A stretch of DNA of 64,000 nt from Clostridia bacterium (GTDB taxonomy: Bacteria > Bacillota > Clostridia > CAKSNL01 > HGM11501). Of this stretch, positions 5,121 through 53,494 are shown piece by piece. Every line of letters begins with the position of its first letter. The stretch's first letter is position 1. The notes under the pieces were generated by a model, which searched no databases, was not told where the DNA came from, and saw only the letters and a list, made by a program, of their open reading frames with translations. The stretch spans positions 1 through 64,000 of the forward strand of contig JAFQQJ010000016.1 in assembly GCA_017411325.1 (NCBI GenBank), in the 5' to 3' direction. A program made the position numbers and the translations under genes.

Positions 5121-5536
5121 AACTTTGGGGTGCTGCAATCACAGTTATGGCTTTTTATGCTATGGGAGTAAAGGTGGCAGAAGAAAGACGAAGAAGGCTT
5201 GAATTTATCGAAAAAATGATAGTTTCTCTTTCGGATTTCAAAGAAGCGGTAACTTTTTTTGCGTTGCCGATTCCGAAAGCCCTTGAAAGAAGCGGGATAG
5301 AAAAGCATAAAAGTCTTATGGATAAGCTTTCTGACGGGGATAAAAAGGATTTTGCCCTTTTCTTAAAGGGTATAAGGTCGGAAACGGCGGAAGGTCAGCT
5401 TTCAAACATAGCCGCATATGAAAAAAAGCTTCTTTCAGAAGAGGTCGAGGAAAGGCTGAAATATAAAAAGGAAGCGAAGCTTGTAAAGGGTGGCTTTCTG
5501 CTTTTCGGACTTTTAATTACGGTTTTGCTTATGTAA
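5114..5536 (+). CDS. spoIIIAB: Stage III sporulation protein AB
   Basis: 140 residues, shorter than the roughly 170 of Bacillus. SpoIIIAB is a membrane protein of the SpoIIIA channel with similarity to type II secretion GspF. There is an N-terminal hydrophobic segment (LWGAAITVMAFYAMGVKVA), a long charged helical region (EERRRRLEFIEKMI) and a C-terminal hydrophobic segment (GGFLLFGLLITVLLM) that ends the protein. The ATG overlaps the end of spoIIIAA, indicating translational coupling. The shortening lies in the middle cytoplasmic helices; both membrane segments remain, so it is probably a compact but functional form. Confidence 0.93.
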   Translation: MLKLWGAAITVMAFYAMGVKVAEERRRRLEFIEKMIVSLSDFKEAVTFFALPIPKALERSGIEKHKSLMDKLSDGDKKDFALFLKGIRSETAEGQLSNIAAYEKKLLSEEVEERLKYKKEAKLVKGGFLLFGLLITVLLM

Positions 5537-5548
5537 TCGGAGGAATAA

Positions 5549-5743
5549 ATGGGAATAGAATTTGTCTTCAAGGTGGCGGGAGTAGGGCTTATCGTTGCCG
5601 TGCTTAATATGATTGTCGGAAAATCAGGCAGGGATGAACAGGCACTTCTTGTCACCATAGCGGGGCTTATTGTGGTTCTTGCACTTGTAATTCCTGAGAT
5701 AGGAAATCTTTTCGAAAGCATTAAAGCGGTGTTCGGACTATGA
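5549..5743 (+). CDS. spoIIIAC: Stage III sporulation protein AC
   Basis: 64 residues with two membrane segments and the conserved short connecting loop with GKSGRDEQA. SpoIIIAC is a small integral membrane subunit of the mother-cell side of the SpoIIIA-Q complex and is related to SpoIIIAD. The ATG follows ATCGGAGGAATAA. It lies 12 bp after spoIIIAB and overlaps spoIIIAD by 4 bp (ATGA). Length and order match the family. Confidence 0.95.
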   Translation: MGIEFVFKVAGVGLIVAVLNMIVGKSGRDEQALLVTIAGLIVVLALVIPEIGNLFESIKAVFGL

Positions 5744-6123
5744 TTGTAAAAATAGCGGGAATATGCATTCTGGGAAGCGTTGCGTGTATATTTTTCAGGC
5801 AGAGCGGCAGAAGTGAATTTGCCGTTCTTACGGCACTTGCCATCGGAGTGTATGTGCTTTTTGTAAGCTTTTCGGAGGTATCCGTTGTTATGGAAACACT
5901 TCGGAATCTGGCAGAAAAAACCGGTCTTGATACCGGAATATACAAAACAGTAATGAAAATAACCGCTGTTGCCTGCATAACCCAGAGTGCATCGGAGCTT
6001 TGCAGGGATGCGGGAGAAGGCTCGCTTTCGGGAAAGGTGGAGCTTTTCGGGAAAATTATTATATGTGCGGCAGCTATACCTGCTGTTACCGCCTTATTCG
6101 GGATAATAGCGGATTTGCTGTGA
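5740..6123 (+). CDS. spoIIIAD: Stage III sporulation protein AD
   Basis: 127 residues, close to the Bacillus length, with four hydrophobic segments. Its N-terminal half (VACIFFRQSGRSEFAVL) is visibly similar to SpoIIIAC, as known for this pair. It is an integral membrane component of the SpoIIIA channel. It starts inside the last codons of spoIIIAC and ends 15 bp before spoIIIAE. Confidence 0.95.
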   Translation: MIVKIAGICILGSVACIFFRQSGRSEFAVLTALAIGVYVLFVSFSEVSVVMETLRNLAEKTGLDTGIYKTVMKITAVACITQSASELCRDAGEGSLSGKVELFGKIIICAAAIPAVTALFGIIADLL

Positions 6124-6138
6124 TATACGGAGATTAAA

Positions 6139-7254
6139 ATGAAAATATTTATACTTGTTCTGAGCCTTTTGTGCTTCTCTTTTGTGCCGTCTTATGCCTC
6201 GGAAACGGCGGACATAACCGGGGTGGAAAACTCCATAAGTGAAAGGGCGATGGAAAATATAGTAAAAGCATCACCGGAGTTTTCTTTTTACGGAACGGTG
6301 GAAAAAATAAAAAACGGCAATTATGAATCAAACCTTAAAGGAATGCTTAGAAAGGGAGCCGATATGTTTCTTTCTGAGATACGGGCAAATGCCGTGATAA
6401 TGGGATGCGTAATGATGCTTGGGATTCTTTGCTCCTTTATATCAAATCTTGCATCCTCCTTTAAAAACGGCGGAGTAAGCGATGCGGCTTTTTTATGCTG
6501 TTATGCTGTTCTGGCAGGGCTTTCTGCAACAGGCTTTAAGGAAATATCGGAATGTGCAAAAGGAGCGATTGAGGATATGGGCTTTTTTATAAAGTCGCTT
6601 GTTCCGTTTTTATCTGTTCTTTCTGCGTCAGAGGGAAGGGTTATTACGGCATCGGTACTGCATACGGAAATCCTTGTGGCAACGGCTGTAAGCTCGTATA
6701 TAACGGAAAGGGTAATTCTGCCGCTTGTCTATGCTTCATTTGCACTGAAGTTTATAAACAATATAACGGAAAATAAAACACTTGCCAACTTTTCTGTAAT
6801 GGCAGATAAATTTGCCAGAAGAATTTTAAGCTTCACACTGCTTATATTTACTGCTGTATTAAGCCTTTCGGGCTTTGCGGCGGGAACGGTTGAAAATATG
6901 GGAATGAAAACAGCACGCTTTGCGGTAAGCAGCTTTGTCCCGGTGGCGGGAGGTGCTTTGGCAGACAGTGTTTCTGCGGTGACGGCTTCCTTCGGTATGA
7001 TTAAAAATTCGGCGGGGATTGCGGGGATAATGGCGATTCTTTTAATGGCGGCATATCCTGTAATAAAGTGTGCCGCAGTAAGCTTTATCTACAGCTTTAC
7101 GGGAGCCCTTATAGAGCCTTTGTGTGATACACGTCTTTCAAGGGCGGTAACTTCGGTGGGGGAGGTTATGGGTATGCTTTTCGGAATTGTATCAATTAGT
7201 GCTGCGCAGTATGTTATAGCCTCAGCCATACTTCTTTTTACATACGGAGGATAA
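6139..7254 (+). CDS. spoIIIAE: Stage III sporulation protein AE
   Basis: 371 residues starting with a cleavable-type signal (MKIFILVLSLLCFSFVPSYA) and containing about seven to eight membrane segments after residue 80. SpoIIIAE is the largest integral membrane subunit of the SpoIIIA complex, needed for sigma-G activity in the forespore. The extracytoplasmic N-terminal stretch (SERAMENIVK, KGMLRKGADMFLSEI) and the later PVAGGALADSVSAV segment are family features. The start follows ACGGAGATTAAA, and the stop is 2 bp before spoIIIAF. Confidence 0.96.
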   Translation: MKIFILVLSLLCFSFVPSYASETADITGVENSISERAMENIVKASPEFSFYGTVEKIKNGNYESNLKGMLRKGADMFLSEIRANAVIMGCVMMLGILCSFISNLASSFKNGGVSDAAFLCCYAVLAGLSATGFKEISECAKGAIEDMGFFIKSLVPFLSVLSASEGRVITASVLHTEILVATAVSSYITERVILPLVYASFALKFINNITENKTLANFSVMADKFARRILSFTLLIFTAVLSLSGFAAGTVENMGMKTARFAVSSFVPVAGGALADSVSAVTASFGMIKNSAGIAGIMAILLMAAYPVIKCAAVSFIYSFTGALIEPLCDTRLSRAVTSVGEVMGMLFGIVSISAAQYVIASAILLFTYGG

Positions 7255-7256
7255 CG

Positions 7257-7688
7257 ATGGAACAATATATTATGTCAATTACGGCATCGGCTCTGATTGT
7301 GACGGTGGCATCGCTTATTCTGCCCGAAGGAAATGTGAAAAAATATGCCCGTCTTGCAAGCTCGGTGGTCATATCGCTTGCGCTTGCTTCGCCTTTGAAG
7401 GCGGTATTTGATATATCGGATGCGTTTGATTTTTATGATATGTCATCCTATGAAATGACGCAGAAGGAAGCAGAAAAAATATATTCTGATAATTTGCGAA
7501 AAGAACTGGGAAAGCATATAGAGGAAGCACTTTTGCCCTATGGAAGAGCCTATGTGAAAATATCGGAGGACTTAAAGGTTGAAAGCATAGAAATATACGC
7601 GGAAAAAGCTATGGATGATGAGTCGGCGGAAGAAATACGGGAACAGTATATGCCGGAAAGGTTTGAGATTATATATGGACAGTATTAA
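7257..7688 (+). CDS. spoIIIAF: Stage III sporulation protein AF
   Basis: 143 residues, against about 206 in Bacillus. It has two N-terminal membrane segments (ALIVTVASLILPEG, SSVVISLALASPLKAVF) and a soluble C-terminal domain (about 60-143). SpoIIIAF has a ring-building fold like the EscJ/PrgK basal-body proteins and belongs to the channel on the mother-cell side. The ATG follows GGAGGATAACG, and the 3' end overlaps spoIIIAG by 14 bp. Confidence 0.9.
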   Translation: MEQYIMSITASALIVTVASLILPEGNVKKYARLASSVVISLALASPLKAVFDISDAFDFYDMSSYEMTQKEAEKIYSDNLRKELGKHIEEALLPYGRAYVKISEDLKVESIEIYAEKAMDDESAEEIREQYMPERFEIIYGQY

Positions 7689-8133
7689 AAGTCTGTTTGA
7701 AAAATTAAAGAATAATAAGCTTATATTAATCATATTGATTATAGGGGTAGCCTTTCTTTTTATCCCGGCAGAGAAGGAGGAAAAGGCTTCTTATGACGGA
7801 AGTTACGAAAAGGAGCTCTCGGAAAAAACAGAGGAAATTCTGGGCAAAATTGAAGGTGCGGGACGGGTTAAGGTTATGCTGAGCTTTTATGATAAGGGCA
7901 CGGGAATTCCTGTCACCGATAAAACGGAAAACCGCGAAAGCGTAAATGAAAAAACAGTATCCGCATCGGGAAAGGTGGTGCTTCTTAAAGAAATGTATCC
8001 ATCTGTCCGCGGGGCGGTTGTGGTATGCGACGGAGGGGAGTCGGAGCGTGTGAAAAATGATATATCGGAAGCGGTAGCTGCTCTTACAGGAGCACCTTTT
8101 CACAATATAAAAATATTCAAAATGGAGGGGTAG
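7675..8133 (+). CDS. spoIIIAG: Stage III sporulation protein AG
   Basis: 152 residues from the ATG at 7675, which gives the expected start (MDSIKSLFEKL) followed by one membrane segment (LILIILIIGVAFLFIP); longer in-frame extensions run into spoIIIAF and look non-coding. SpoIIIAG forms a large ring in the intermembrane space of the SpoIIIA-Q channel. The ring-building motif (EEILGKIEGAGRVKVMLS) and the C-terminal VRGAVVVCDG segment are conserved. It is shorter than Bacillus SpoIIIAG (about 229), mainly in the linker. Confidence 0.94.
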   Translation: MDSIKSLFEKLKNNKLILIILIIGVAFLFIPAEKEEKASYDGSYEKELSEKTEEILGKIEGAGRVKVMLSFYDKGTGIPVTDKTENRESVNEKTVSASGKVVLLKEMYPSVRGAVVVCDGGESERVKNDISEAVAALTGAPFHNIKIFKMEG

Positions 8134-8135
8134 GT

Positions 8136-8660
8136 TTGTTTAAGAAAAAGCAGGCGGTTTTGGCAGCACTTGTTTTTATGATAGGGCTGGCAGGGTATTT
8201 TAACTGGTCATATCAGCATTCGGAAAACGGTGTTGTAAGCGATACAGAGGATTCGTCGTTGGGTGAGGCGAGGCTTGTTTCGGGAACCAATATAATGAAA
8301 AATGAGGACTTTTTTGCAGACAGCAGAAGAGAAAGGGAGGAAGGACGGAGCAAGGCACAGGAAAGCCTCAGGGAGGTTTGCGAAAATCCGGGAAGCACTC
8401 CTGAAGCAAAAAAAGAAGCGGAAATAAGACTTATGGATATGGCGGGACGGATGGAAATGGAAGCGGCAGCTGAAGCTGAAATAAAGGCGAAAGGATTTTC
8501 CGACGCGGTGGTGTACATAAATTCGGGCTCTGCCAGCGTGATAGTGGAAAAGGACGGCGAGCTTACGGCAAGCGAGGCGGCAAAGCTTCAGGAAATTATA
8601 ATAAGGATAGCCGGCATTGACAGTTCTGCCATAGGAATTTCCGTGCATAAAAAGGTATAA
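8136..8660 (+). CDS. spoIIIAH: Stage III sporulation protein AH
   Basis: 174 residues from a TTG start directly after GGAGGGGTAGG. One N-terminal membrane segment (AVLAALVFMIGLAGYFNW) is followed by a low-complexity linker and the extracellular ring-building domain (about 85-174). SpoIIIAH faces the intermembrane space and binds forespore SpoIIQ, bridging the two cells. The FFADSRREREEGRSKAQE helix is typical. The stop codon TAA forms part of the -35 element of the promoter of spoIIR. Confidence 0.95.
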   Translation: MFKKKQAVLAALVFMIGLAGYFNWSYQHSENGVVSDTEDSSLGEARLVSGTNIMKNEDFFADSRREREEGRSKAQESLREVCENPGSTPEAKKEAEIRLMDMAGRMEMEAAAEAEIKAKGFSDAVVYINSGSASVIVEKDGELTASEAAKLQEIIIRIAGIDSSAIGISVHKKV

Positions 8661-8683
8661 AGCTTTTTTTGCAAGGGTATACT
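8655..8683 (+). promoter_or_regulatory. Sigma-F-type promoter of spoIIR
   Basis: GTATA (8655-8659) and GGGTATACT (8675-8683) match the sigma-F consensus GYATA-15 bp-GGNNANANT with a spacing of exactly 15 bp. There is no matching sigma-A -35 box for the TATACT. In Bacillus spoIIR is read by sigma-F in the forespore. The -35 element covers the stop codon of spoIIIAH. Confidence 0.75.
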
Positions 8684-8712
8684 TAAAGAAAAAACGAAAC
8701 GGAGAACTTTTT

Positions 8713-9312
8713 ATGAAAAAGCTTTTGATTTCCGGCACTTTTGTGTGCCTTGCCGCACTTTTTCTGCTTTTTGGCTATGCATCGAGGGAAAAGGCTGCCA
8801 TTGCTTCCTCGGTATTAAGGCTTCATATTGTTGCTGAAAGCAACAGTGAAGAAGACCAGAAGCTGAAGCTCAAGGTACGGGATACGGTTTTAAGGGAAGC
8901 TGCGGCAATTTTTGCGGGTGCGGAAAACAAGGAAGAGGCAATGTATCTCGCAAGAGAAAATGAGGAGCTTTTTATAAAAGCAGCTGAAGCAACATTGAAA
9001 AATGAAGGGTGCATATCGCCTGTTACATTAAGTATAGGAAAAACAGTTTTTCCCTGCAAGGAGTATGAAAATATCCGCCTTCCGGGAGGAATCTATGATG
9101 CTGTCAATGTGAAAATAGGAAAGGCGGAAGGAGAAAACTGGTGGTGCATAATGTATCCTATGCTTTGCTTTACAGACAGCGTTTCATCAAAGCTTGATAC
9201 CGGGGGAGAAGCGGCACTTAAAAAAGAGCTTGGCGAAGAGCGATTTTCTCTTATAAGTGAAACGGATGACAAAAAAATCAATATAAAATTTAAAATATTG
9301 GAACTATTTTGA
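8713..9312 (+). CDS. spoIIR: Stage II sporulation protein R
   Basis: 199 residues starting after GGAGAACTTTTT. There is an N-terminal signal-type segment (LLISGTFVCLAALFLLFGYA) followed by the SpoIIR hallmark VLRLHIVAESNSEEDQKLKL, with KVRDTVL next to it. SpoIIR is made in the forespore, exported across the septum, and triggers SpoIIGA to process pro-sigma-E in the mother cell. Finding it directly after spoIIIAH but behind its own sigma-F-like promoter fits its forespore expression, while the spoIIIA genes belong to the mother cell. It is shorter than some homologues that have an extra C-terminal domain. Confidence 0.95.
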   Translation: MKKLLISGTFVCLAALFLLFGYASREKAAIASSVLRLHIVAESNSEEDQKLKLKVRDTVLREAAAIFAGAENKEEAMYLARENEELFIKAAEATLKNEGCISPVTLSIGKTVFPCKEYENIRLPGGIYDAVNVKIGKAEGENWWCIMYPMLCFTDSVSSKLDTGGEAALKKELGEERFSLISETDDKKINIKFKILELF

Positions 9313-9343
9313 AAAACCGCCGAAAAAATCGGCGGTTTTTTTA
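9311..9343 (+). terminator. Terminator after spoIIR
   Basis: Stem AAAACCGCCGA/TCGGCGGTTTT with an A-rich loop, followed by a T-run. It overlaps the stop codon region of spoIIR. Confidence 0.9.
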
Positions 9344-9351
9344 AAAATATG

Positions 9352-9380
9352 TTGCAAGAACTGCTTTTTTTATGTATAAT
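9352..9380 (+). promoter_or_regulatory. Sigma-A promoter of the cysE operon
   Basis: TTGCAA (9352-9357), 17 bp, TATAAT (9375-9380). Confidence 0.7.
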
Positions 9381-9411
9381 AATATAGAGTATGTTATAAG
9401 GAGAAAATTTT

Positions 9412-10035
9412 GTGTTCAGATATTTCAAATCCATTAAAGAACGTGATCCTGCTGCAAGAAGTATTATAAGTATTTTCTTTAATTATCCTTGCGTTCACGC
9501 CATATTCTGGCACAGGATTGCACACTTTTTCTATAAAATACATTTCTATTTCCTTGCAAGATTAATCTCGCAGCTTGTAAGGTGGTTTACATTGATAGAA
9601 ATTCATCCCGGTGCCACCATCGGAAAGAATTTACTGATTGACCACGGCTGCGGAGTAATAATCGGTGAAACCACTGAAATCGGCGATAACTGTACAATCT
9701 ATCAGGGAGTAACCCTGGGCGGTACCGGTAAGGATACGGGTAAGCGCCATCCCACCATCGGTAACAACGTTATGATTGGTGCGGGTGCCAAGGTGCTTGG
9801 CCCCTTCAAAGTGGGGGACCGCAGTAAGATTGCGGCAAATGCCGTTGTATTAAATGAGGTTCCGCCTGACTGTACCTGTGTTGGTGTTCCCGGAAGAATT
9901 GTTAAAAAGGGCGAAAAGAAGGTTGACCTTGACCAGATTCACATTCCCGATCCCGTTTCACAGGAATTTTGCCGTATGCAAAAGGAAATAGACGATTTAA
10001 AAGCGATAATAAAAGAGCTGAAGGAGAATAAGTAA
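9412..10035 (+). CDS. cysE: Serine O-acetyltransferase
   Basis: 207 residues from a GTG start after ATAAGGAGAAAATTTT. CysE makes O-acetylserine from serine and acetyl-CoA, the first step of cysteine synthesis. The N-terminal helical region (about 1-60) is followed by left-handed beta-helix hexapeptide repeats with the family signature GVTLGGTGKDTGKRHPTIG (about 101-119) and catalytic histidines (DHGCG, KRHP). It is the short form usual in Firmicutes. It overlaps cysS by one base (TAATG), coupling cysteine supply to cysteinyl-tRNA formation. No T-box precedes this operon. Confidence 0.96.
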   Translation: MFRYFKSIKERDPAARSIISIFFNYPCVHAIFWHRIAHFFYKIHFYFLARLISQLVRWFTLIEIHPGATIGKNLLIDHGCGVIIGETTEIGDNCTIYQGVTLGGTGKDTGKRHPTIGNNVMIGAGAKVLGPFKVGDRSKIAANAVVLNEVPPDCTCVGVPGRIVKKGEKKVDLDQIHIPDPVSQEFCRMQKEIDDLKAIIKELKENK

Positions 10036-11420
10036 TGAGAGTATTTAACACAATGACCGCAAAAAAAGAAGAGCTTGTCCCGATTAAACCCGGTGAAGTA
10101 AGCATCTATGCCTGTGGCCCAACGGTATATAACTTTTTTCATATAGGAAATGCAAGAATGTTCGTTGTATTCGACACTCTTCGCCGTTATCTTGAATATT
10201 CCGGCTACAAGGTAAACTTCGTGCAGAACTTTACCGATATTGACGATAAAATGATAAAGAAGGCAAACGAGGACGGAACAACGGTAAAGGAAATTGCAGA
10301 AAAGTACATAGAGGAGTATTTCACCGATGCTAAGGGACTTAACATAAAGAAGGCAACGGTACATCCCAAGGCGACAGAAAACATCGATGCGATTATCGAA
10401 ATCGTTTCAGAGCTTGTGGAAAAGGGCTATGCCTATGAGGTGGAAGGTGACGTTTACTTCGAGGTGGAAAAGTGCGAAAACTACGGAAAGCTTATCCACC
10501 AGAGCCTTGACGATTTAAGAAGCGGGGCAAGAATTGACGTTGACGAAAGAAAGAAGTCACCTCTTGACTTTGCACTCTGGAAGGCTGTAAAGCCCGGAGA
10601 GCCTTATTGGGACAGCCCCTGGGGCAAAGGAAGACCCGGCTGGCACATTGAGTGCAGTGCAATGAGCACAAAGTATCTGGGTAAGACCATTGACATCCAC
10701 GGCGGTGCCATTGACCTTATTTTCCCGCATCACACCAACGAAATTGCACAGAGCGAATGCGCAAACGGCTGCAACTTCGTAAATTACTGGATGCACAATG
10801 CATATATAAATGTTGACAACAGAAAAATGTCAAAGTCACTTAATAACTTCTTTACTGTTCGTGATGTTGCGGCAAAATACAGCTACAACGTAATAAGATT
10901 CTTCCTTTTGAGTGCTCATTACAGAAGCCCCATGAACTTCTCAGATGAGCTTATGGAAGCATCAAAGAGCGGCCTTGAAAGAATCACAACCTGCGTTTCC
11001 AATCTGGAATTTTTAATGGGAAATGCAAAAGAAAAGGGCATAACAGAAGAATTCAGAGCAAAGATGGATTCCTTCAAAGAAGCTTTCAAAAAGGGTATGG
11101 ATGACGACCTTAACACAGCTGACGGTATTGCGGCTATTTTCGATGCCGTTAAGGAAGCAAATTCAAATGCAAACAATCTTTCAAAAGAAGACCTTGCATA
11201 TGCAAAGGAAACAATAGAAGAGCTTTGCTCTGTTCTCGGCGTAATCGTATCGGAAGAAAAGGAAGACTTATCCGAAAAGGTTGAAGCTTTAATTGCCGAA
11301 AGAACAAAGGCAAGAAGCGAGAAAAACTATAAGAGAGCCGATGAAATAAGAGACGAGCTTAAGGCTATGGGTATCGTTTTGGAAGATACTGCTCAGGGTG
11401 TAAAATGGAAAAAGGCATAA
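10035..11420 (+). CDS. cysS: Cysteinyl-tRNA synthetase
   Basis: 461 residues, the standard class Ia length. The HIGH-type motif HIGN lies at about 35-38 ([10 protein letters not shown]) and KMSKS at about 264-268. Zinc ligands are visible as CGPTVYN near residue 27 and in [10 protein letters not shown]. The enzyme charges tRNA-Cys. It starts on the last base of cysE and overlaps mrnC by 16 bp, the cysE-cysS-mrnC order common in Firmicutes. Confidence 0.97.
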
Positions 11421-11830
11421 GTGAAGCTTTAGGCTATATGCCGGAAAATGCAAAAAGCTATTCACCATTGGCCCTTGCCTACATAGGGGACTCGGTGCAC
11501 ACTTTGTATATAAGGACAAGGATAATGGCAGCAGGCGATAAAAAAGTGAATGAGCTTCATAAGCTTTGTTCGAGGTTTGTAAAGGCGAAGGCGCAAAGCG
11601 ATGCGATTCACGCCCTTTTACCGCTTCTTACCGAAGAGGAGGAGTCGGTGTATAAAAGGGGAAGAAATGCAAAAAGCTACACCACTGCCAAAAATGCAGA
11701 TGTAACGACCTATCGGCACGCAACAGGCTTTGAAGCGTTAATAGGATATTTATACTTAAGTAAAAATGAAGAACGGCTTAATTTTTTACTTGAACGTTCT
11801 TATGAATTTATTAATACGGAGGAAGAATAA
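11405..11830 (+). CDS. mrnC: Mini-ribonuclease III
   Basis: 141 residues consisting of an RNase III catalytic domain without a double-strand RNA-binding domain. The motif [18 protein letters not shown] (about 19-36) carries the catalytic acidic residue, and the second acidic site is in [11 protein letters not shown] near the C-terminus. In Bacillus MrnC processes the ends of 23S rRNA precursors. The start lies within cysS and the stop TAATG overlaps the start of glyA, so all four genes from cysE are translationally linked. Confidence 0.95.
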
Positions 11831-13068
11831 TGTTTACAGAGAGAGTTTCTAAAGTAGATCCCGAGCTTGCACAGGCTATAGAAAATGAAGTAAAAAGACA
11901 GCAGAACAAGATTGAGCTTATTGCATCCGAAAACTTTGTTACAAGAGAAGTTATGGAAGCAATGGGTTCCCCCCTCACAAACAAATATGCAGAGGGCTAT
12001 CCCGGCAAGCGTTATTACGGCGGATGTGAGCACGTTGACGTTGTGGAAGATCTGGCACGCGACAGAGCGAAGGAGCTTTTCGGTGCAAAGTTTGCAAACG
12101 TTCAGCCCCACAGCGGTGCTCAGGCAAATATGGCAGTATTTTTCGCACTTTTAGAGCCCGGGGATACCTATATGGGTATGAACCTTGCTCACGGCGGTCA
12201 TTTAAGCCACGGTTCTCCCGTCAATATGTCAGGAAAATATTTCAATGTTGTGCCCTATGGTGTTTCTGAAGAAACCGGTATGATTGATTATGACGAAGTA
12301 AGAAGAATTGCCCTTGAAGTAAAGCCCAAGATGATACTCGCCGGTGCAAGCGCATATTCAAGAACCATCGACTTTGCGCGCTTTTCCGAAATCGCAAAGG
12401 AAGTGGGCGCGTATTTGATGGTTGATATGGCACACATTGCAGGTCTTGTAGCGGCAGGGCTTCATCCCAATCCTGTAGAGTATGCGGATGTTGTAACAAC
12501 CACCACTCATAAGACCTTAAGAGGCCCCAGAGGCGGTCTTATCTTAACAAACGATGAAGAGCTTGCCAAGAGAATTGACAAGGCAATATTCCCCGGTATC
12601 CAGGGCGGCCCCTTAATGCATGTTATTGCAGGTAAGGCTATGTGCTTTAAGGAAGCACTTTCCGAGGGCTTTAAAGAATATCAGGCTCAGGTTATCAAAA
12701 ATGCAAAAACTCTTGCAGATAGCCTTATAGAAGAAGGCTTTGATATCGTATCCGGCGGAACGGACAACCATCTTATGTTGGTTGATGTGAGAAAGTTCTC
12801 ACTTACCGGTAAGGAGCTTGAGAGAAGACTTGACGATATCGGCGTAACCTGTAACAAAAATGCAATACCCTTCGATCCCGAAAAGCCCTTTGTAACAAGC
12901 GGTATCCGTCTCGGAAGCCCGGCTGTTACAACAAGAGGCTTTAAGGAAGAGGATATGAAGGAGGTTGCCAGAATCATAAAGATTGCGGCACTCGGGGATG
13001 AGTCGAAGTACGAAGAAGCAAGAGCAAGAGTTAAAGCTCTTTGCGACAAATATCCTCTCTATCAATAA
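11830..13068 (+). CDS. glyA: Serine hydroxymethyltransferase
   Basis: 412 residues of a fold-type I PLP enzyme that converts serine and tetrahydrofolate to glycine and methylene-tetrahydrofolate. The PLP lysine is at about 228 in [14 protein letters not shown], and [11 protein letters not shown] and [13 protein letters not shown] near the N-terminus are family signatures. The start follows GGAGGAAGAATA. Its position after cysE-cysS-mrnC connects serine use for cysteine and for one-carbon units. Confidence 0.98.
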
Positions 13069-13080
13069 TTGATGTTTTCT

Positions 13081-13106
13081 TTGCCAAAGCCAAAGGGCTT
13101 TGGCAA
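13081..13106 (+). other. Perfect 10-bp hairpin without T-tract
   Basis: TTGCCAAAGC and GCTTTGGCAA flank a six-base loop between glyA and rarA. No T-run follows, so it is not a standard terminator; it may stabilise the glyA mRNA end or modulate read-through into rarA. Confidence 0.6.
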
Positions 13107-13132
13107 AGCAGTTTAAGGAAAGGAGGCAATTT

Positions 13133-14395
13133 ATGGCATCAAGACCGCTGGCGGACAGAATGCGTCCGTCCGATATAGCAGATGTTGTGGGACAGGAGCA
13201 TCTTTTAGCTGAGGGAAAGGCCCTTCGCAATATCTTAGAGTCGGGAAATATTTCGAATATGATATTTTACGGGCCATCGGGAACCGGCAAAACCACAGTT
13301 GCCAATATTGCCGCCGAAAAGAGCAATAAAAGGCTTTACCGCTTAAATGCCACAACAGCAGGAGTAAGCGACATAAAAAGCATAATTAATGAGCTTGATT
13401 CCATGCTTGGAATGGATGGGGTTCTTTTATATCTTGACGAGATTCAGAACTTCAATAAGAAGCAGCAGCAGTCTCTTCTCGAATTTATCGAAAACGGTAA
13501 AATAACCCTTATTGCCAGCACCACGGAAAATCCCTATTTTTACATATACAATGCCATTTTGTCCCGTTGTACCGTGTTTGAGTTCAAGGAGGTTCCGCCA
13601 TCCGAAACAGAAAAGGCGGTAAGAAGGGCAATAGCTCTGGTTTCCGGCGAAAGAAACGTAATCTTTGACGATGATGCGATTACGCACATCGCCCATCTTT
13701 CGGGCGGAGATGTGAGAAAGGCCCTTAACTCAGTTGAGGTATGTATGCTTGCAGCAAATCCCGATTCTGACGGGAAAATTCACGTAACCATACAGACTGC
13801 GGAGGACTGCACGCAGAAAAAGGCGTTAAGATACGATAAGGACGGAGACAGCCATTATGATATAATAAGTGCTTTCCAGAAGTCTATAAGAGGAAGCGAC
13901 CCTGATGCGGCGATGCACTATCTTGCAAGACTTGTAGCATCGGATGATTTGCAGATTATTGCAAGACGTCTTTTGGTAATTGCAGCGGAGGATGTGGGAT
14001 TGGCTTATCCTCAGGCGATAAGCATAGTGAAATCCTGTGTTGACGCGGCTTTTCAGCTGGGCTTTCCGGAGGCAAGGATTCCGCTTGCAGAAGCAACACT
14101 GCTTCTTGCAACTGCACCTAAATCAAACAGTGCAATTATGGCCATTGATGCGGCTATGTCGGATTTGTCCGCGGGGAATACGGGGGACATTCCTCCTCAT
14201 CTTAAGGACTCGCACTACAGCGGAGCATCAAAGATGGGTAGAGGGCTTACCTATAAATATCCCCATAGCTATCCCAACCATTATGTGGCTCAGCAGTATC
14301 TGCCTGATGAGATAAAGCAAAGAAAATACTATGAGCCCGGAGATAACAAGTTTGAGCAGTCATTAAAGGCTTATTTTGATAAAATAAAAGGATAA
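13133..14395 (+). CDS. rarA: Replication-associated recombination protein A
   Basis: 420 residues from the ATG that follows GGAAAGGAGGCAATTT; an in-frame TTG 33 bp upstream lies in the hairpin and lacks a ribosome binding site. This is the AAA+ ATPase RarA/MgsA, which acts at stalled replication forks. The Walker A loop GPSGTGKTTVAN lies at about 46-57 and the Walker B LLYLDEIQ at about 98-105; sensor TTENPYF and the C-terminal tetramerisation region (YPHSYPNHYVAQQYLP) are present. It is probably co-transcribed from glyA or uses an unseen promoter. Confidence 0.95.
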   Translation: MASRPLADRMRPSDIADVVGQEHLLAEGKALRNILESGNISNMIFYGPSGTGKTTVANIAAEKSNKRLYRLNATTAGVSDIKSIINELDSMLGMDGVLLYLDEIQNFNKKQQQSLLEFIENGKITLIASTTENPYFYIYNAILSRCTVFEFKEVPPSETEKAVRRAIALVSGERNVIFDDDAITHIAHLSGGDVRKALNSVEVCMLAANPDSDGKIHVTIQTAEDCTQKKALRYDKDGDSHYDIISAFQKSIRGSDPDAAMHYLARLVASDDLQIIARRLLVIAAEDVGLAYPQAISIVKSCVDAAFQLGFPEARIPLAEATLLLATAPKSNSAIMAIDAAMSDLSAGNTGDIPPHLKDSHYSGASKMGRGLTYKYPHSYPNHYVAQQYLPDEIKQRKYYEPGDNKFEQSLKAYFDKIKG

Positions 14396-47014: not shown

Positions 47015-50000
47015 ATGAAAAAAATAACAAGTTTAATTTTAAGTATCGCTGTTTTTACATCATGCATTACAAGTTTTGCATATAACAGAGATACGACAAC
47101 AAAAGTTTCTGCTGCGGATTTGCTGGAAATATTGGAAAGCGATACGACAAAGGAAAAAACAATAGAATCCAATGAAGAGTGGATTGAATATCTGAATAAT
47201 AATACATCAACAGATTCGCTGGTTCCTGGTGTATCCCTCAACACAAGTGATTTAAGCAGTACAAATTCTGCTGAAATTAATACAGACACGGCAGAAACCG
47301 AAGAAGCAAAAAAAGAGGAAGAAACTCTTTCACTGCAAGCAACATCGGCTGTAGCTACAGCATCAACAACAGAAGAAGAAATTTTGCTTGACCCGGTGAA
47401 TGCGCCGTTTAATATTGTGAATTATGGCAATGAAAATGTATCGCTTTCTACAGGAGGGCTAATTTATGAGCATTCGATTATTTCACTTCCGGGAAGAAAT
47501 GGACTTGACTTAAATCTTATGCTAAAATACAGCTCCGATGCATCAACCAGCAACGAAGCGGAATTTGAAAAGGGAAGAAGCGAGGCTGCAAAAAATGGAT
47601 ATTTTTTTGCAAACGGTTGGGGATTCGGATTCGATAATTTGCTTTTGAGCAAAAAGCACAAAGAAGATTCTCTTGTTTTATCTTCAGGAGAGACATATGA
47701 ATTGGAAACTGCTACATTGGGAACTACAGACAAGGATATAGAAATAAAAGGTTATCTGCTCACCGATATGAAGCTGACCGGAAACAAAAGTGAATATACT
47801 CTTAGCTTTAACGATGGTACGGTTGAAAAATTCGATACCGTTAGCGGTGTTATACTTTCTAAATCAGATAGGTTTGGAAACACTATAACATTTGAATATG
47901 ATACCATTGAATATTACCGAGGAACATTTACAGATTATTTTGTGATTCCGTCTGCATATATTCAAGATATGCAGGTATTGAAAACGATTACTGACAGTGC
48001 GGGAAGAAAAATAAATTTTGAGTACGAAACGGAAAGAAAAAAGGACGGAATTTTTATAAATTCCATTGAAATTACAATGGAAGAAAGCGGAGAAGATAAA
48101 AAGTTGGCTGAAATTAAGCTTGCTACGGATAAAAATTCATTTGGATATTATACATATGTCGACCAAATAAGTGAATATGTTAATGATAGCGAGAAATTAA
48201 CAACTTCTTTTGAATATGAAGAAAAAACAACGAAAATATATAATTCGGCGTTGAAAACATATACACTTTTTGGTGAGTGTCTTCTACTGACTAAAATTAA
48301 CTATCCTACAGGCGGATACAATGAATATACCTATACACAGCATCAGCGAGCATTGAAAACAGCGCACTATGATGTGTATAAAGTTACAAAAAGCGAAAAC
48401 AGTGAAGGTGTAATAAATAAATACGAATATGAAGGGGATTATTCGGGTTATCCGTATAGCTATCCTTCCGGTGATTATAATTATATTGATAGGAGTAGCG
48501 TGGAATATTTTACTACTGTAACAAGGTATCAAAACAAAGATTGCACTGAAGGGAATGTTACTGTATATAGATTTGACTGCTTCCATGATTTAATCAGCGA
48601 AACAACCTATGAGTTAAATAAGGCGTCATCCAGATATATAACGGCAGGAGGCATAGCGGAGAAAACCATATTGAAAGATGGGGTGTATTACAGTGCAACA
48701 ATAGATTATCCTTATCTTGTGCTTTATCGTTGGACAGAGAATGGGGAAAAGGAGTTCTTAAAACCATATGACGCAAGATATCTGAACGGTGACGCAACAG
48801 GGGAGGTTACCGGACTTAAATGTATAGGCGATGATTTATATGTATTTGCATATATGTCTAACTCAAATCATAAATCAATGGAAGTATATAAATATAATAT
48901 TCCGGAAAACTCTTGGACAGAGATGGATAACTACGGAAATTATGATAACCCCATGGGAGCGCTTGAAGCAAATTATAACGGAGAAGTTTTCTATTTTGCT
49001 AAAAGGCACTATTCGACCAGAGAACTCTATGTTTATGTATTTAATCCCGAAACAGATGTATGGAGATTGGATACATTTGGATACAGCCAGCTGGAAGATT
49101 ATGATATATATCATCTTGGATGTAATGAAGATTTCGCTTTTTTCGGAGCATATAATTCGATTTTGCAATATAATTTTGAAACAGGAGAAACAACCAAGAA
49201 ATCTTTTTCTGCTCTTACTAACGATAAACTGCGTAGCGGGTGTGTATTTAACGGAAAAGTTTATTGCACCGATTTTAATGATTGCATCAGAATTTACGAC
49301 ATTGAAACAAAAACTTTGAGCGATGCGTATGATTTACCGTATAACAGTGCAACTATAATTAATGCAGGCTCTGACGGGAAAATATATATGTTTGGAAACA
49401 AAGGTGAAATATATAGATTTAATCCCGAAAATTTAGATTATGAATTTGTTTCATACAGAATGTATCCTGATAGTGATGGTAGTGTATTATGGACCGATGA
49501 CCATATATATTTCAGAATGGAATATAATTCGGTGACAGACGATTCTAATTTCGGCGGATATGAGAAGATAAACATTCAGTCAAGCGATTTTGAACGTAAA
49601 ATTGAAGAAAATGTGTATAATTCAACAAGTCATTTATTGCAAAGTAAAACAGTCAAGCAATATAAAGGCAGTGAGCTTGTCGAGGATTATATTGAAAAAT
49701 GGCAATATAAGTCAGGAACAAAACTTGTTACAAAATATACAAATCCCGAAGGGTATATAAATAACTATACCTATGACTCAACATATTATCTGCCTACAAA
49801 AGATGTGTTATATTACGGAGAAGACGGGAAAATAACAATTAACTACACTCTGTCAGCCGAAAAGGATAAAATTATATCAAAAGAAGAAGTCTATGATGAC
49901 AGGCAAATACTCACGGAATATCTTTATGAAGATAGCAGTGGCGAGGGAGAAGAGCTCATATCCTATATAGGAAATGTTACCAATGAAACAATAACGGTTA

Positions 50001-52909
50001 CAAAGGGGACGACAACAGAAGAAATAAGCAATGTTTCGTATGTTTATGATGATACACACAGCTTTGTTGCCGAAAAAATAGTGGAAAATATCAGCACAAA
50101 CAATGAAAACTTCGCAGTTGCCGACAGCGCCGATGTGGTAACGGAATATACGTATAACAATTTGGGACTTCTTGCATCGGAAACAGATGCTAACGGAAAT
50201 ACGGCAAGCTATACCTATAACCGCAAGGGCTGGATTACATCGGCTGATTATCCCGGCGGAAAAAGCGTTGATATAACCTATAAAATAGGCGAAAATCAAA
50301 ACAAAACCACAATGAGCTATAATAACGGAGACTATATCACATTAGCTTATTATGACAACCTTGGGCGAGTTACAAAGGAAAGCGATAAAGGAACAGGAAA
50401 AAGTGAACGCATATTAAGAGAGTATACCTATGACGGATTAAACTTAGTGTCAACCGAAAGCATAGGCGATAACCTTGAAGTATATGGCTATGACGGATTC
50501 GGAAATATAATTAAGACCATTTCGCAAAATGCATTTGACACGAAGGGCGTTATAAGCTATAATGAATATGACAATGTTAAAAGAACCGTTACCGCTATAA
50601 CGAAAAATCTCGACTTTGACGGAACAGATGCGGAAGAAACCGAGGTTTCAAGAAGCGTTACAACCTATGACCTGATGGGACGTACCGTAAAGGTTGAAAA
50701 CGGATTTTCAAACGGAACGGCTCTTGAAACAAAAACCTTTACCTATGACTACATGGGTAATGTGCTGACGGAGACTGACGGCGAGGGCAACACCACAAGC
50801 TACGCCTATAATGATTTGGGACAGCTTTTGACGGTGACGGATGCGCTTTCGGGAATTACAAGCTATACTTATGATTTGGCGGGAAATGTGGCGTCTCTTG
50901 AAACGCCGGGTGAAAGTGTGACATCATACACCCATGACACTTTGGGAAGACTGATAAGCGAAACCGATGCTCTGGGAAAAACCGAATATTACCGCTATGA
51001 TGCAAACGGCAATGTTACAGGTATAAAGGACAGAAACTTAAATGTTATAACTACGGCATACGATGCGGCAAACAGACCTGTTTCAAAGGCTGGCGGAAGC
51101 CTTAATGTTTCATACAGCTATGATGCCTTTGACAACCTTACGGAAATGGTTGATGCGACCGGAACAACAGAATTTTCCTATACCTATGACAATCTTCTTG
51201 AAAGCATAAGCTATCCCGACGAAAAAACGCTGTTTTACAGCTATTCTCCCGAGGATAACACCGTAACGAAGGAAAACTATAGGGAGGAAGAAACGGTTTC
51301 ACACTTTGACTCCCTCGGAAGAGAGGTAGCGATATACGAAAACGAAGATGCAATAGCAGAATTCGTTTATAACGGCGGAACAATTGAAAAAGCGATATAC
51401 GAAAACGGCAGTACGGATTATTCTTATGATAATGCAATGCGCCTGACAGGTCTCACTTCTAGCCTTACGGGTGCTACCGGAAATATCGGGGAATATTCCT
51501 ATGAATATGACAACCGCGGCAATCAGACGAAGAAAACGGAGATTAAAAACGGCGAAAGCCTTGTAACCGAATACACTTACGATGCACTTTCCCGTCTTTC
51601 TTCCGTAACGGAGCCTGACGGAAGCGTAACAGGCTACAGCTTTGATGCAAACGGAAATATCTCTGCTAAAAGCATAACTCATCCGGAAGCATTTGTTTTC
51701 ACCTCTGGGGATATATCGGTGTCGGAGATAACAAGCCACACGGTGACTTATACCTATGATGCCAATAACAGACTGCTAACCGAAACCGAAGAAGTTGAAG
51801 GCGACACGGAGTTTGCTGGAACAAAAACCTATACCTATGACGATGCCGGAAACCTTATCGGAAAGACAACCGGGGGCGATTACGGAGCAAAAGCGGAAAA
51901 CTATGTATATGATGCCTTCGGCAGAATGACAGAGTATAAGGTGGGCGGAGAAACCGTCGCAAGCTATGGCTATAACGGAAACGGTGAGCGTGTTTCCAAA
52001 ACCGTGGGGGAAAGCCTTACCAAGTTCTACCTCGAAAACGGAAATGTAATAAACGAAGGAAACGGAACGGCGATAAATGTAACCAACTACTTCGGCGCAA
52101 CCGGTATATTCAAGCGTGTAACAGGTGATACGGAAAGCATACTTTATAGAAACGGACACGGGGATGTTGTGAGAAAAACTTCCGGCACATCTGTTTTGAG
52201 AGATTACGACTACGATGCATACGGAAAAGAAAAGACAGCAACGGCAGACGATAACCCCTTCCGCTATGCAGGGGAATACGCCGACGAAGAAACAGGACTT
52301 ATCTACTTACGGGCAAGATACTACGACCCCACCATCAGCAGATTTACGGCAGAGGACACCCACTGGACTCCCGATAATATGATTTACGGGGATAAGGAAT
52401 ACAAGGAGAATGAAATACGTATTCCTGACCTTGAAGCAATTATGCAGTCAAATGGATTGTATAATTATTGCATAAATAATCCAATAAAGTATGTGGATAC
52501 AAGTGGAGAGGATATCATAATAACTGCTGGGATAGTCGGAGTATTTAAGCTAATTGGTGCTGCGGTGGTGGCAATAGGTGCCACTTATGCCATTAAACAA
52601 ATTGTTAAGAATATAGAGGATAATAGGAAGCATCATATACTTCATGGAACTAATAGTTTGCATGAAAAAGGGTGGAAAAAATTTAACATTGATCCAAACG
52701 ATCCTAATGGCTTTGAAAAACTGTTGCCTATAATTAACGAAGTTGTTAAAAACGGAGATAAATCTGAATGGACTAAGCAATCTACAGGAGTATTAACAAG
52801 AACAATTACTTATTATTTTTCGGAAGTTGGAGAGACTGTTCAAGTTATTATAAATAAAGGCTTAGATGGAATAGAAAAAATAACAGATGCTTTTACGATA
52901 TTTAAATGA
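47015..52909 (+). CDS. RHS/YD-repeat (WapA-type) surface protein with C-terminal toxin-like tip
   Basis: 1964 residues from the ATG after TAAGGAGGTTATTTTT. Signal peptide (ITSLILSIAVFTSCITSFA), acidic linker, then an RHS N-terminal region (about 110-450; NVSLSTGGLIYEHSIISLPG). A Kelch-like beta-propeller segment (about 545-850, repeats such as DDLYVFAYMS, MEVYKYNIPENSW, YVYVFNPETDVW) is inserted. Numerous YD repeats (about 900-1740) lead to the RHS core RYAGEYADEETGLIYLRARY (about 1750-1769), where the shell closes and releases the variable tip. The tip (about 1828-1964) holds a hydrophobic segment and a small domain beginning KHHILHGTNSLHEKGW. Such tips are contact-dependent toxins; the target here is unknown, though it may be a Ntox-type nuclease. 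An immunity candidate follows. Confidence 0.9.
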   Translation: MKKITSLILSIAVFTSCITSFAYNRDTTTKVSAADLLEILESDTTKEKTIESNEEWIEYLNNNTSTDSLVPGVSLNTSDLSSTNSAEINTDTAETEEAKKEEETLSLQATSAVATASTTEEEILLDPVNAPFNIVNYGNENVSLSTGGLIYEHSIISLPGRNGLDLNLMLKYSSDASTSNEAEFEKGRSEAAKNGYFFANGWGFGFDNLLLSKKHKEDSLVLSSGETYELETATLGTTDKDIEIKGYLLTDMKLTGNKSEYTLSFNDGTVEKFDTVSGVILSKSDRFGNTITFEYDTIEYYRGTFTDYFVIPSAYIQDMQVLKTITDSAGRKINFEYETERKKDGIFINSIEITMEESGEDKKLAEIKLATDKNSFGYYTYVDQISEYVNDSEKLTTSFEYEEKTTKIYNSALKTYTLFGECLLLTKINYPTGGYNEYTYTQHQRALKTAHYDVYKVTKSENSEGVINKYEYEGDYSGYPYSYPSGDYNYIDRSSVEYFTTVTRYQNKDCTEGNVTVYRFDCFHDLISETTYELNKASSRYITAGGIAEKTILKDGVYYSATIDYPYLVLYRWTENGEKEFLKPYDARYLNGDATGEVTGLKCIGDDLYVFAYMSNSNHKSMEVYKYNIPENSWTEMDNYGNYDNPMGALEANYNGEVFYFAKRHYSTRELYVYVFNPETDVWRLDTFGYSQLEDYDIYHLGCNEDFAFFGAYNSILQYNFETGETTKKSFSALTNDKLRSGCVFNGKVYCTDFNDCIRIYDIETKTLSDAYDLPYNSATIINAGSDGKIYMFGNKGEIYRFNPENLDYEFVSYRMYPDSDGSVLWTDDHIYFRMEYNSVTDDSNFGGYEKINIQSSDFERKIEENVYNSTSHLLQSKTVKQYKGSELVEDYIEKWQYKSGTKLVTKYTNPEGYINNYTYDSTYYLPTKDVLYYGEDGKITINYTLSAEKDKIISKEEVYDDRQILTEYLYEDSSGEGEELISYIGNVTNETITVTKGTTTEEISNVSYVYDDTHSFVAEKIVENISTNNENFAVADSADVVTEYTYNNLGLLASETDANGNTASYTYNRKGWITSADYPGGKSVDITYKIGENQNKTTMSYNNGDYITLAYYDNLGRVTKESDKGTGKSERILREYTYDGLNLVSTESIGDNLEVYGYDGFGNIIKTISQNAFDTKGVISYNEYDNVKRTVTAITKNLDFDGTDAEETEVSRSVTTYDLMGRTVKVENGFSNGTALETKTFTYDYMGNVLTETDGEGNTTSYAYNDLGQLLTVTDALSGITSYTYDLAGNVASLETPGESVTSYTHDTLGRLISETDALGKTEYYRYDANGNVTGIKDRNLNVITTAYDAANRPVSKAGGSLNVSYSYDAFDNLTEMVDATGTTEFSYTYDNLLESISYPDEKTLFYSYSPEDNTVTKENYREEETVSHFDSLGREVAIYENEDAIAEFVYNGGTIEKAIYENGSTDYSYDNAMRLTGLTSSLTGATGNIGEYSYEYDNRGNQTKKTEIKNGESLVTEYTYDALSRLSSVTEPDGSVTGYSFDANGNISAKSITHPEAFVFTSGDISVSEITSHTVTYTYDANNRLLTETEEVEGDTEFAGTKTYTYDDAGNLIGKTTGGDYGAKAENYVYDAFGRMTEYKVGGETVASYGYNGNGERVSKTVGESLTKFYLENGNVINEGNGTAINVTNYFGATGIFKRVTGDTESILYRNGHGDVVRKTSGTSVLRDYDYDAYGKEKTATADDNPFRYAGEYADEETGLIYLRARYYDPTISRFTAEDTHWTPDNMIYGDKEYKENEIRIPDLEAIMQSNGLYNYCINNPIKYVDTSGEDIIITAGIVGVFKLIGAAVVAIGATYAIKQIVKNIEDNRKHHILHGTNSLHEKGWKKFNIDPNDPNGFEKLLPIINEVVKNGDKSEWTKQSTGVLTRTITYYFSEVGETVQVIINKGLDGIEKITDAFTIFK

Positions 52910-52921
52910 GGTGCTGATGTT

Positions 52922-53398
52922 TTGAATATTTTAGAAGATTTTTTAAAAGAAAAAAGTAAAATGTTGTTTGGTAAAGAAAATGATATTTTGGAAAAAAGTT
53001 ATGATTGGATAGAGAGTATCAATGGGAATTTTACCGGAATCAGCAGAGAGGTGCTATTGGCACAAGTCTATTATCTTAGGACGGCTTGTAAGCTAAAAAT
53101 TGAAGATTCCATAAAAGCTTGTGAACATTTTGAAAAGATTCCTGAGGATTGTTTTACAGAGGAACTTATAAAAAATTATATTTTTGTACTTAAGTTAAGC
53201 TATCAGTTTGAAAAAGTTGTTTTCATACTGAAAAATGTTATGAATACTCAGCCGTGGTTTGGGTTTGAATATTTTTGTTTGTACGAAATAGCGGATGAAG
53301 CAATGGTTGCAGACGGAGCTATTACATATGTTGAATATTTAGAATATAAAAAACAATTAAAAGCTCTGTTAAAAAAAGCGGCAGAACGCTTAAAGTGA
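52922..53398 (+). CDS. Probable immunity protein for the RHS toxin tip
   Basis: 158 residues from a TTG that follows GAGGTGCTGATGTT, only 12 bp after the RHS stop. It is mostly helical, acidic and soluble, without signal peptide (MNILEDFLKEKSKMLF, YYLRTACKLKIEDSIKACEH). I do not recognise the family. The inference of immunity comes from position: in RHS/WapA loci the gene right after the toxin tip protects the producer. Base composition is clearly AT-richer than in neighbouring housekeeping genes and equals that of the toxin tip, as expected of an exchangeable toxin-immunity cassette. Helical repeat-like regions could mimic TPR or Imm-type proteins. Confidence 0.7.
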   Translation: MNILEDFLKEKSKMLFGKENDILEKSYDWIESINGNFTGISREVLLAQVYYLRTACKLKIEDSIKACEHFEKIPEDCFTEELIKNYIFVLKLSYQFEKVVFILKNVMNTQPWFGFEYFCLYEIADEAMVADGAITYVEYLEYKKQLKALLKKAAERLK

Positions 53399-53465
53399 CA
53401 AAGGGGACGTACATTTTTGGGTACTACTCCTTACAGAAACAGCAAAGAACCATTCGGAATAAACC

Positions 53466-53494
53466 AAAATGCACCCGTCGGGTGCATTTTTATT
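53466..53494 (+). terminator. Terminator after the immunity gene
   Basis: Stem AAATGCACCC/GGGTGCATTT with a GTCG loop, followed by TTATTTG. Confidence 0.85.

What the first reader, a model, noticed from the sequence alone, without database searches (positions are those of the whole stretch)
52490..53398. RHS-delivered toxin tip with an unrecognised immunity partner
After the RHS core, residues 1828-1964 form a separate tip with KHHILHGTNSLHEKGW and a beta-rich end, and the next gene, 12 bp away, encodes an all-helical acidic protein of unknown family. Both are AT-rich compared with the RHS core, which fits cassette exchange. This is the strongest candidate for a new polymorphic toxin-immunity pair in the window.
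Basis: partly seen in the sequence, partly recalled or inferred. Interest (0 to 1): 0.68.

Follow-up and report, generated by a model that had tools for sequence, protein, structure and literature searches.

The report
RHS toxin tip with immunity partner
A gut bacterium carries a large secreted protein whose swappable tail is very probably an RNA-cutting toxin aimed at rival bacteria, and the small gene right behind it very probably makes the matching antidote, from a family not in the libraries searched.

Summary
Confirmed and narrowed. Residues 1828-1964 of a Sec-signal-bearing RHS protein (47015-52909) form a separate AT-rich tip, followed 12 bp on by a 158-aa all-helical gene. Pfam, NCBIfam and PADLOC name neither. 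A relative in another family of the class (G326, roe-deer-rectum Clostridia MAG) has the same tip (71% over 95 aa) on a different RHS core fragment, with the same partner next door (45% over 150 aa). In matched samples of 391 genomes, both occur only in these two genomes. Both genes are under purifying selection (dN/dS about 0.14 and 0.29). In G326, tandem RHS fragments share core DNA up to the DPSG codons and then carry different tip/downstream-gene pairs, so the pair moves as a cassette. The tip is not an unknown fold: a profile of three Pfam Ntox35 toxins picks it out of 1633 ORFs (E about 0.001-0.002; next 1.2), profile-profile alignment agrees (P 5e-7), and the predicted order (helices, then four strands) suits the BECR RNase fold. 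One His and the C-terminal Thr are kept; the second His is shifted. Ntox35's own HMM misses it, so it is a divergent relative. The partner matches no known immunity family. Toxicity and protection remain untested.

The parts
47015..52909 (+). RHS/YD-repeat protein, 1964 aa, Sec-type N-terminal signal (MKKITSLILSIAVF...), kelch-like part at residues 604-767, RHS repeats; delivery body
   Evidence: RHS_repeat 1.3e-48, YD_repeat_2x, Rhs_assc_core; signal peptide read from sequence, not tested
52211..52507 (+). Rhs_assc_core (TIGR03696), residues 1733-1831, ending at YVDTSGED
52496..52510 (+). DTSGE: core/tip switch point; equivalent of DPSG where relatives change tips
52514..52582 (+). Hydrophobic segment (residues 1834-1856) between core and toxin domain; the most hydrophobic 19-mer of the whole protein, and a hydrophobic stretch in the same place in the relative
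   Evidence: Kyte-Doolittle 2.39 at residue 1834; relative's stretch read from sequence
52604..52906 (+). Toxin domain, distant Ntox35/BECR-type RNase (predicted); H1873, H1874, H1877, H1883 near the N-terminus and T1957 in the last strand (ITDAF)
52908..52913 (+). GAGGTG, likely Shine-Dalgarno of the partner, overlapping the toxin stop codon
   Evidence: sequence
52922..53398 (+). Partner gene, 158 aa, all-helical (TPR-like by fold, weak); predicted immunity protein
53466..53490 (+). Intrinsic terminator closing the RHS-partner transcription unit
   Evidence: 11-bp stem plus T-rich tail; no + strand terminator found between tip and partner
53396..53419 (+). TGACAAAGGGGACGTACATTTTTG, lone divergent copy of a short repeat that clusters around RHS cassettes in relatives (tentative)

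Best explanation
The locus is a WapA/RHS-type polymorphic toxin with its immunity gene. The RHS protein is exported by its Sec signal (inferred) and displays or encloses its C-terminal domain. On contact with a neighbour, the ~100-residue tip enters and cleaves RNA, most likely tRNA or rRNA, through a metal-independent histidine/threonine active site of the BECR type related to Ntox35 (inferred from remote homology; the RNA target is unknown). The 158-aa helical protein made from the next gene binds the tip in the producer and its kin and blocks the active site (inferred). Tip and partner form one exchangeable cassette joined to RHS cores at the D(P/T)SG boundary (shown by comparison).
For: Same tip and same next gene on a different RHS core fragment in another family of the class: tip 71% over 95 aa, partner 45% over 150 aa, E 5e-46, gap 21 bp. 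Tip and partner occur in exactly the same two of 391 class genomes. Both are under purifying selection: dN 0.24/dS 1.76 and dN 0.45/dS 1.53. In G326 the DNA of two tandem RHS fragments is identical over the last ~60 bp to the DPSG codons, after which tip and downstream gene differ. In G019 the same core-end type carries another tip and another downstream gene. An HMM of three Pfam-confirmed Ntox35 domains ranks the tip loci next after its own members among 1633 ORFs, E 0.0011-0.0022, next 1.2. hhalign P 5e-7 over 80 columns, against a best score of 19.9 in 200 column shuffles (real 40.2). Predicted order H-H-H-E-E-E-E, pLDDT 80.6. PMC3482391 describes Ntox35 as predicted BECR with two N-terminal His plus S/T in the C-terminal strand. 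WapA of B. subtilis is a Sec-exported, contact-delivered tRNase with WapI immunity (PMC5566331, PMC3967940).
Against: Pfam Ntox35 itself does not hit either tip even at E 10. The second histidine is not in the Ntox35 position (H-E-K-G-W here, K-H-D-W there), and one accepted member, L034, lacks it. Foldseek against PDB gave no significant match to any BECR structure (best E 0.056, unrelated). Only two tips are known, so conservation of catalytic residues is poorly constrained. No delivery route was identified beyond a signal peptide read from sequence.
Confidence: 0.78

Rival explanations
1. It is a toxin-immunity pair, but the tip is not an RNase: it is a new fold or an HNH/AHH-type DNase using the HH motif.
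For: The relative's tip gives a weak PF14412 AHH match (E 0.07, residues 2-37), and HHI plus further His residues are present. No fold match to BECR in PDB.
Against: The window tip gives no AHH match. Half of the domain is a four-strand sheet, which does not fit the compact HNH core. The full-length match to Ntox35 covers the strands and the C-terminal IT/S-D-A-F/W motif.
Confidence: 0.12
2. The partner is not immunity but a tip-specific chaperone or secretion adaptor (TPR-like), and immunity lies elsewhere.
For: The AF2 model resembles TPR repeats in PDB (many matches with TMq 0.5-0.6, all E above 0.1), and TPR proteins often act as chaperones or adaptors.
Against: It lies 3' of the toxin and follows the tip rather than the RHS core. 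No other gene in the transcription unit could be immunity; a terminator follows at 53466. Other Ntox35 tips are likewise followed directly by helical-looking genes.
Confidence: 0.08
3. The tip is a decayed or chance C-terminus and the partner a passenger gene, with no current function.
For: Only two copies were found, and orphan RHS fragments in relatives are often frame-broken.
Against: dN/dS of 0.14 and 0.29, and intact frames in both genomes; conserved gene order across families.
Confidence: 0.03

Closest known systems
WapA/WapI of Bacillus subtilis (RHS-type, Sec-exported tRNase toxin and immunity; PMC5566331, PMC3967940)
   Same: Large YD/RHS-repeat protein with a Sec-type signal, variable C-terminal toxin, small immunity gene directly downstream in a Gram-positive-type lineage
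   Different: Shorter body (1964 aa against 2200-3600 given in PMC3967940); no direct sequence comparison of tip or partner with WapA/WapI was made; no wall-binding domain found by Pfam
Ntox35 (PF15534), predicted BECR-fold RNase toxins (PMC3482391); e.g. SAR2788-family toxin of Alkalihalophilus pseudofirmus plasmid pBpOF4-02 (L048)
   Same: N-x-x-HIL start, W, helix with I-I-x-x-V-x-x-G, strands with ETV-V, final I-S/T-D-A-W/F; helices then four strands
   Different: Two insertions (after HIL and before the second helix), longer beta hairpin, second His shifted by two residues, aromatic F for W at the end; not detected by the Pfam model
Rhs main/orphan cassettes of Salmonella (PMC3967940)
   Same: Displaced core fragments with a tip and its own immunity gene; recombination boundary at DPxG
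   Different: Those are T6SS-linked; here no secretion-system genes are adjacent; in the window there is a single main RHS with no orphan
YxiD-YxxD of B. subtilis 6633 and MafB2/MafI2 (Ntox50, BECR, solved complexes; PMC12700104)
   Same: BECR-type RNase toxin blocked by a downstream partner
   Different: Different BECR clade, LXG/Maf delivery, and the immunity YxxD is Sm-like with a beta sheet, not all-helical

Membership tests
RHS/WapA polymorphic toxin system | RHS/YD repeats ending in the Rhs-associated core | tested here: met
RHS/WapA polymorphic toxin system | Variable C-terminal domain replaced at a fixed boundary while core is conserved | tested here: met
   G326 tandem fragments and G019 core with other tips
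RHS/WapA polymorphic toxin system | Small gene directly downstream that travels with the tip | tested here: met
RHS/WapA polymorphic toxin system | Tip is toxic and the downstream gene protects specifically | not testable with these tools
   bench test needed
Ntox35 (PF15534) | Score over the curated Pfam cut-off | tested here: not met
   no match even at E 10
Ntox35 (PF15534) | Homology by profile comparison | tested here: met
   HMM of three members: E 0.001-0.002 among 1633 ORFs; hhalign P 5e-7, shuffles far lower
Ntox35 (PF15534) | First N-terminal His (xHIL) | tested here: met
   H1874 aligns
Ntox35 (PF15534) | Second His in KH-x-W | tested here: not met
   His present two residues further from W (HEKGW); also absent in accepted member L034
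Ntox35 (PF15534) | S/T in C-terminal strand | tested here: met
   T1957 in ITDAF aligns with ISDAW
BECR fold | N-terminal helices followed by a four-strand meander | tested here: met
   AF2 order H-H-H-E-E-E-E, pLDDT 80.6
BECR fold | Structural match to a solved BECR protein | tested here: inconclusive
   no significant Foldseek match of any kind
AHH (PF14412) nuclease | Match to the AHH profile | tested here: not met
   window tip none; relative's tip E 0.07, below cut-off
Known Imm families (Pfam, NCBIfam) | Partner matches any immunity model | tested here: not met
Immunity-like genes beside other Ntox35 toxins (L048, L033, L034, G324) | Homology to the partner | tested here: not met
   hhalign probability 9% or less

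The most novel reading that the evidence does not exclude
The pair defines a new Ntox35-related toxin subfamily with a rearranged histidine site and a new all-helical immunity family. Ntox35-type toxins would then have recruited at least four apparently unrelated antidotes, and the cassettes would be moved between RHS genes with the help of a short palindromic repeat (ARGGGACGGTTCT type) found at cassette edges in several genera.
Probability: 0.15. Interest if true: 0.55.

Novelty: new member of a known kind. Interest (0 to 1): 0.36.

Why it matters
It adds a testable toxin-immunity pair to the thinly studied RHS arsenal of gut Clostridia. It extends the reach of a predicted RNase family for which I found no experimental paper in the held library, and it supplies an immunity family absent from Pfam, NCBIfam and PADLOC. 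It does not change the general picture of polymorphic toxins.

Tried and rejected
Pfam CRISPR_Cas9_WED on the tip (E 0.005, below cut-off): not reproduced by the 71%-identical relative, so chance. NIPSNAP and other PDB sequence matches: chance E-values. Tip or partner in phages, plasmids and IMG/VR: nothing convincing. A hit with three stops, L007: unrelated DNA. L037 and L038: unrelated genes. Foldseek of the tip against PDB and BFVD: nothing significant. Partner against the immunity-like genes of other Ntox35 loci: no homology. Tip-only HMM against held ORFs: Ntox35 member L033 at E 0.005 was mixed with pre-selected chance hits, so uninformative; the reverse test was clean. The L033 Ntox35 tail may be truncated at its start, so in the final alignment it was used only from EHDW on.

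Full report
What is there. The window holds one RHS gene, 47015-52909, coding for 1964 residues that begin with a Sec-type signal sequence (signal read from sequence). Pfam and NCBIfam find RHS and YD repeats and an Rhs-associated core at residues 1733-1831. The finding's tip starts at D1828 (52496), exactly at the end of that core, and ends at 52906. The partner is TTG 52922-53398, 12 bp behind the stop, with GAGGTG over the toxin stop codon. A strong intrinsic terminator follows at 53466-53490 and none lies between the two genes on this strand. GC falls from 44% in the last 1.5 kb of the core to 30% in the tip domain and partner. This is the most AT-rich 0.9 kb of the window, although parts of the N-terminal half of the same gene are nearly as AT-rich.

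Is it a real, conserved pair? No library names the tip or the partner. In 391 genomes of the same class, one other genome, G326 (JAFUPN010000029.1, Clostridia bacterium from roe deer rectum), carries the tip, 71% identical over 95 residues. Its next gene, 21 bp on, is a 45% identical partner. A partner profile finds the same two genomes and no other convincing one in the same sample. Codon comparison gives dN/dS of about 0.14 (tip) and 0.29 (partner), with saturated dS near 1.5-1.8, so both proteins have been kept under selection over a long time. The two RHS cores around them are clearly different.

How the cassette moves. In G326 two short RHS fragments lie in tandem. Their DNA is nearly identical up to the codons for DPSG and then diverges into different tips, each with its own downstream gene. 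In G019 a core end very like that of the window (62%, including MIYGDKQYKEDEIKIPDMSAIMQ) carries an unrelated tip and downstream gene. In G324 a main RHS is followed by orphan fragments with Ntox35-like tails, both split between frames, each followed by an immunity-like gene. This is the main/orphan arrangement described for Rhs (PMC3967940). The window's own genome has only this one RHS core of its type.

What the tip is. The standard Pfam model for Ntox35 does not see it. Three sequences that Pfam does accept as Ntox35 (L033, L034, L048) were turned into a profile without the tips. Among 1633 ORFs from all loci held, that profile ranked the tip loci directly after its own members at E 0.0011-0.0022; the next ORF was at 1.2. 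hhalign of the two tips against the three gave P 5e-7 over 80 columns with a score of 40.2, where 200 column shuffles reached at most 19.9. The alignment reads VKNIEDNRKHHIL... against VKNIDANKRAHIL..., then W, II-x-x-V-x-x-G, ETV-V and ITDAF against ISDAW. AlphaFold2 from only two sequences gave helices followed by four strands at pLDDT 80.6, the order described for BECR RNases. Ntox35 is described as a predicted BECR RNase with two N-terminal histidines and a C-terminal S/T (PMC3482391). Here the first His (H1874) and the Thr (T1957) are kept. The second His is displaced by two residues (H1883), or its role is taken by H1877; two sequences cannot decide this. PDB and viral fold searches were not informative.

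What the partner is. AlphaFold2 predicts nine helices at pLDDT 87. The PDB matches are mostly TPR proteins but none is significant. The genes directly behind other Ntox35 tips also code for mostly helical proteins by inspection, but none is detectably related to this partner; L033's is related to one in G324, and L048's only marginally to the other. So the partner looks like a separate immunity family. The chaperone rival is disfavoured because the gene tracks the tip, not the core.

Mechanism. Shown: conserved pair, cassette boundaries, purifying selection, remote homology to Ntox35. Inferred: export by Sec, contact delivery as for WapA (PMC5566331), entry helped by the hydrophobic segment at residues 1834-1856, RNA cleavage, and neutralisation by direct binding. 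RHS toxins of the T6SS type cut themselves at DPLGL-type motifs (PMC8636562). The window has DTSGE at this place, so self-cleavage here is uncertain.

A side observation. A short repeat, ARGGGACGGTTCT inside variable palindromic arms, sits around RHS cassettes. In G326 4 of 5 genomic copies lie in the RHS array. In G029 all three sites lie within about 1.5 kb of an RHS core. In G011 only some do. None of 117 kb of non-RHS loci had the looser motif. The window has one divergent copy starting on the partner's stop codon, unique in its genome. The repeat has no Rfam match. Whether it takes part in cassette exchange is untested.

Verdict. The tip is best called a divergent Ntox35-related BECR RNase toxin rather than an unknown fold. 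It is a good, testable new pair of a well-known kind.

Noticed in passing
53396-53419; L039 (nine copies), L053, L067, L074, L076: Short repeat ARGGGACGGTTCT, often inside variable palindromic arms (AACACGA...TCGTGTT, TGTCAA...TTGACA), concentrated around RHS cassettes in G326 and G029 and partly in G011; the window has a single divergent copy at the partner's stop codon. No Rfam family; could be a cassette-linked mobile repeat.
   Followed up: partly
L084 (G324:C36) 4382-13685: Main RHS followed by two orphan RHS fragments, both ending in Ntox35-like tails that are split between reading frames, each followed by its own immunity-like gene.
   Followed up: partly
L039 (G326:C12) about 120346-121549: Neighbouring RHS fragment with a LysM-like stretch and a tip ending NHGGANHEFPHEHEW..., followed by a 169-aa ORF that shares a YDGFHD motif with the gene behind the unrelated tip in L050.
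   Followed up: no
47015-52909, residues 604-767: Kelch-like segment inside the RHS protein (weak Kelch matches) before the RHS repeats, an unusual insertion in an RHS body.
   Followed up: no
L033, L034, L048, L084: Ntox35-type toxins appear to be paired with several mutually unrelated immunity-like proteins that look helical by inspection.
   Followed up: partly
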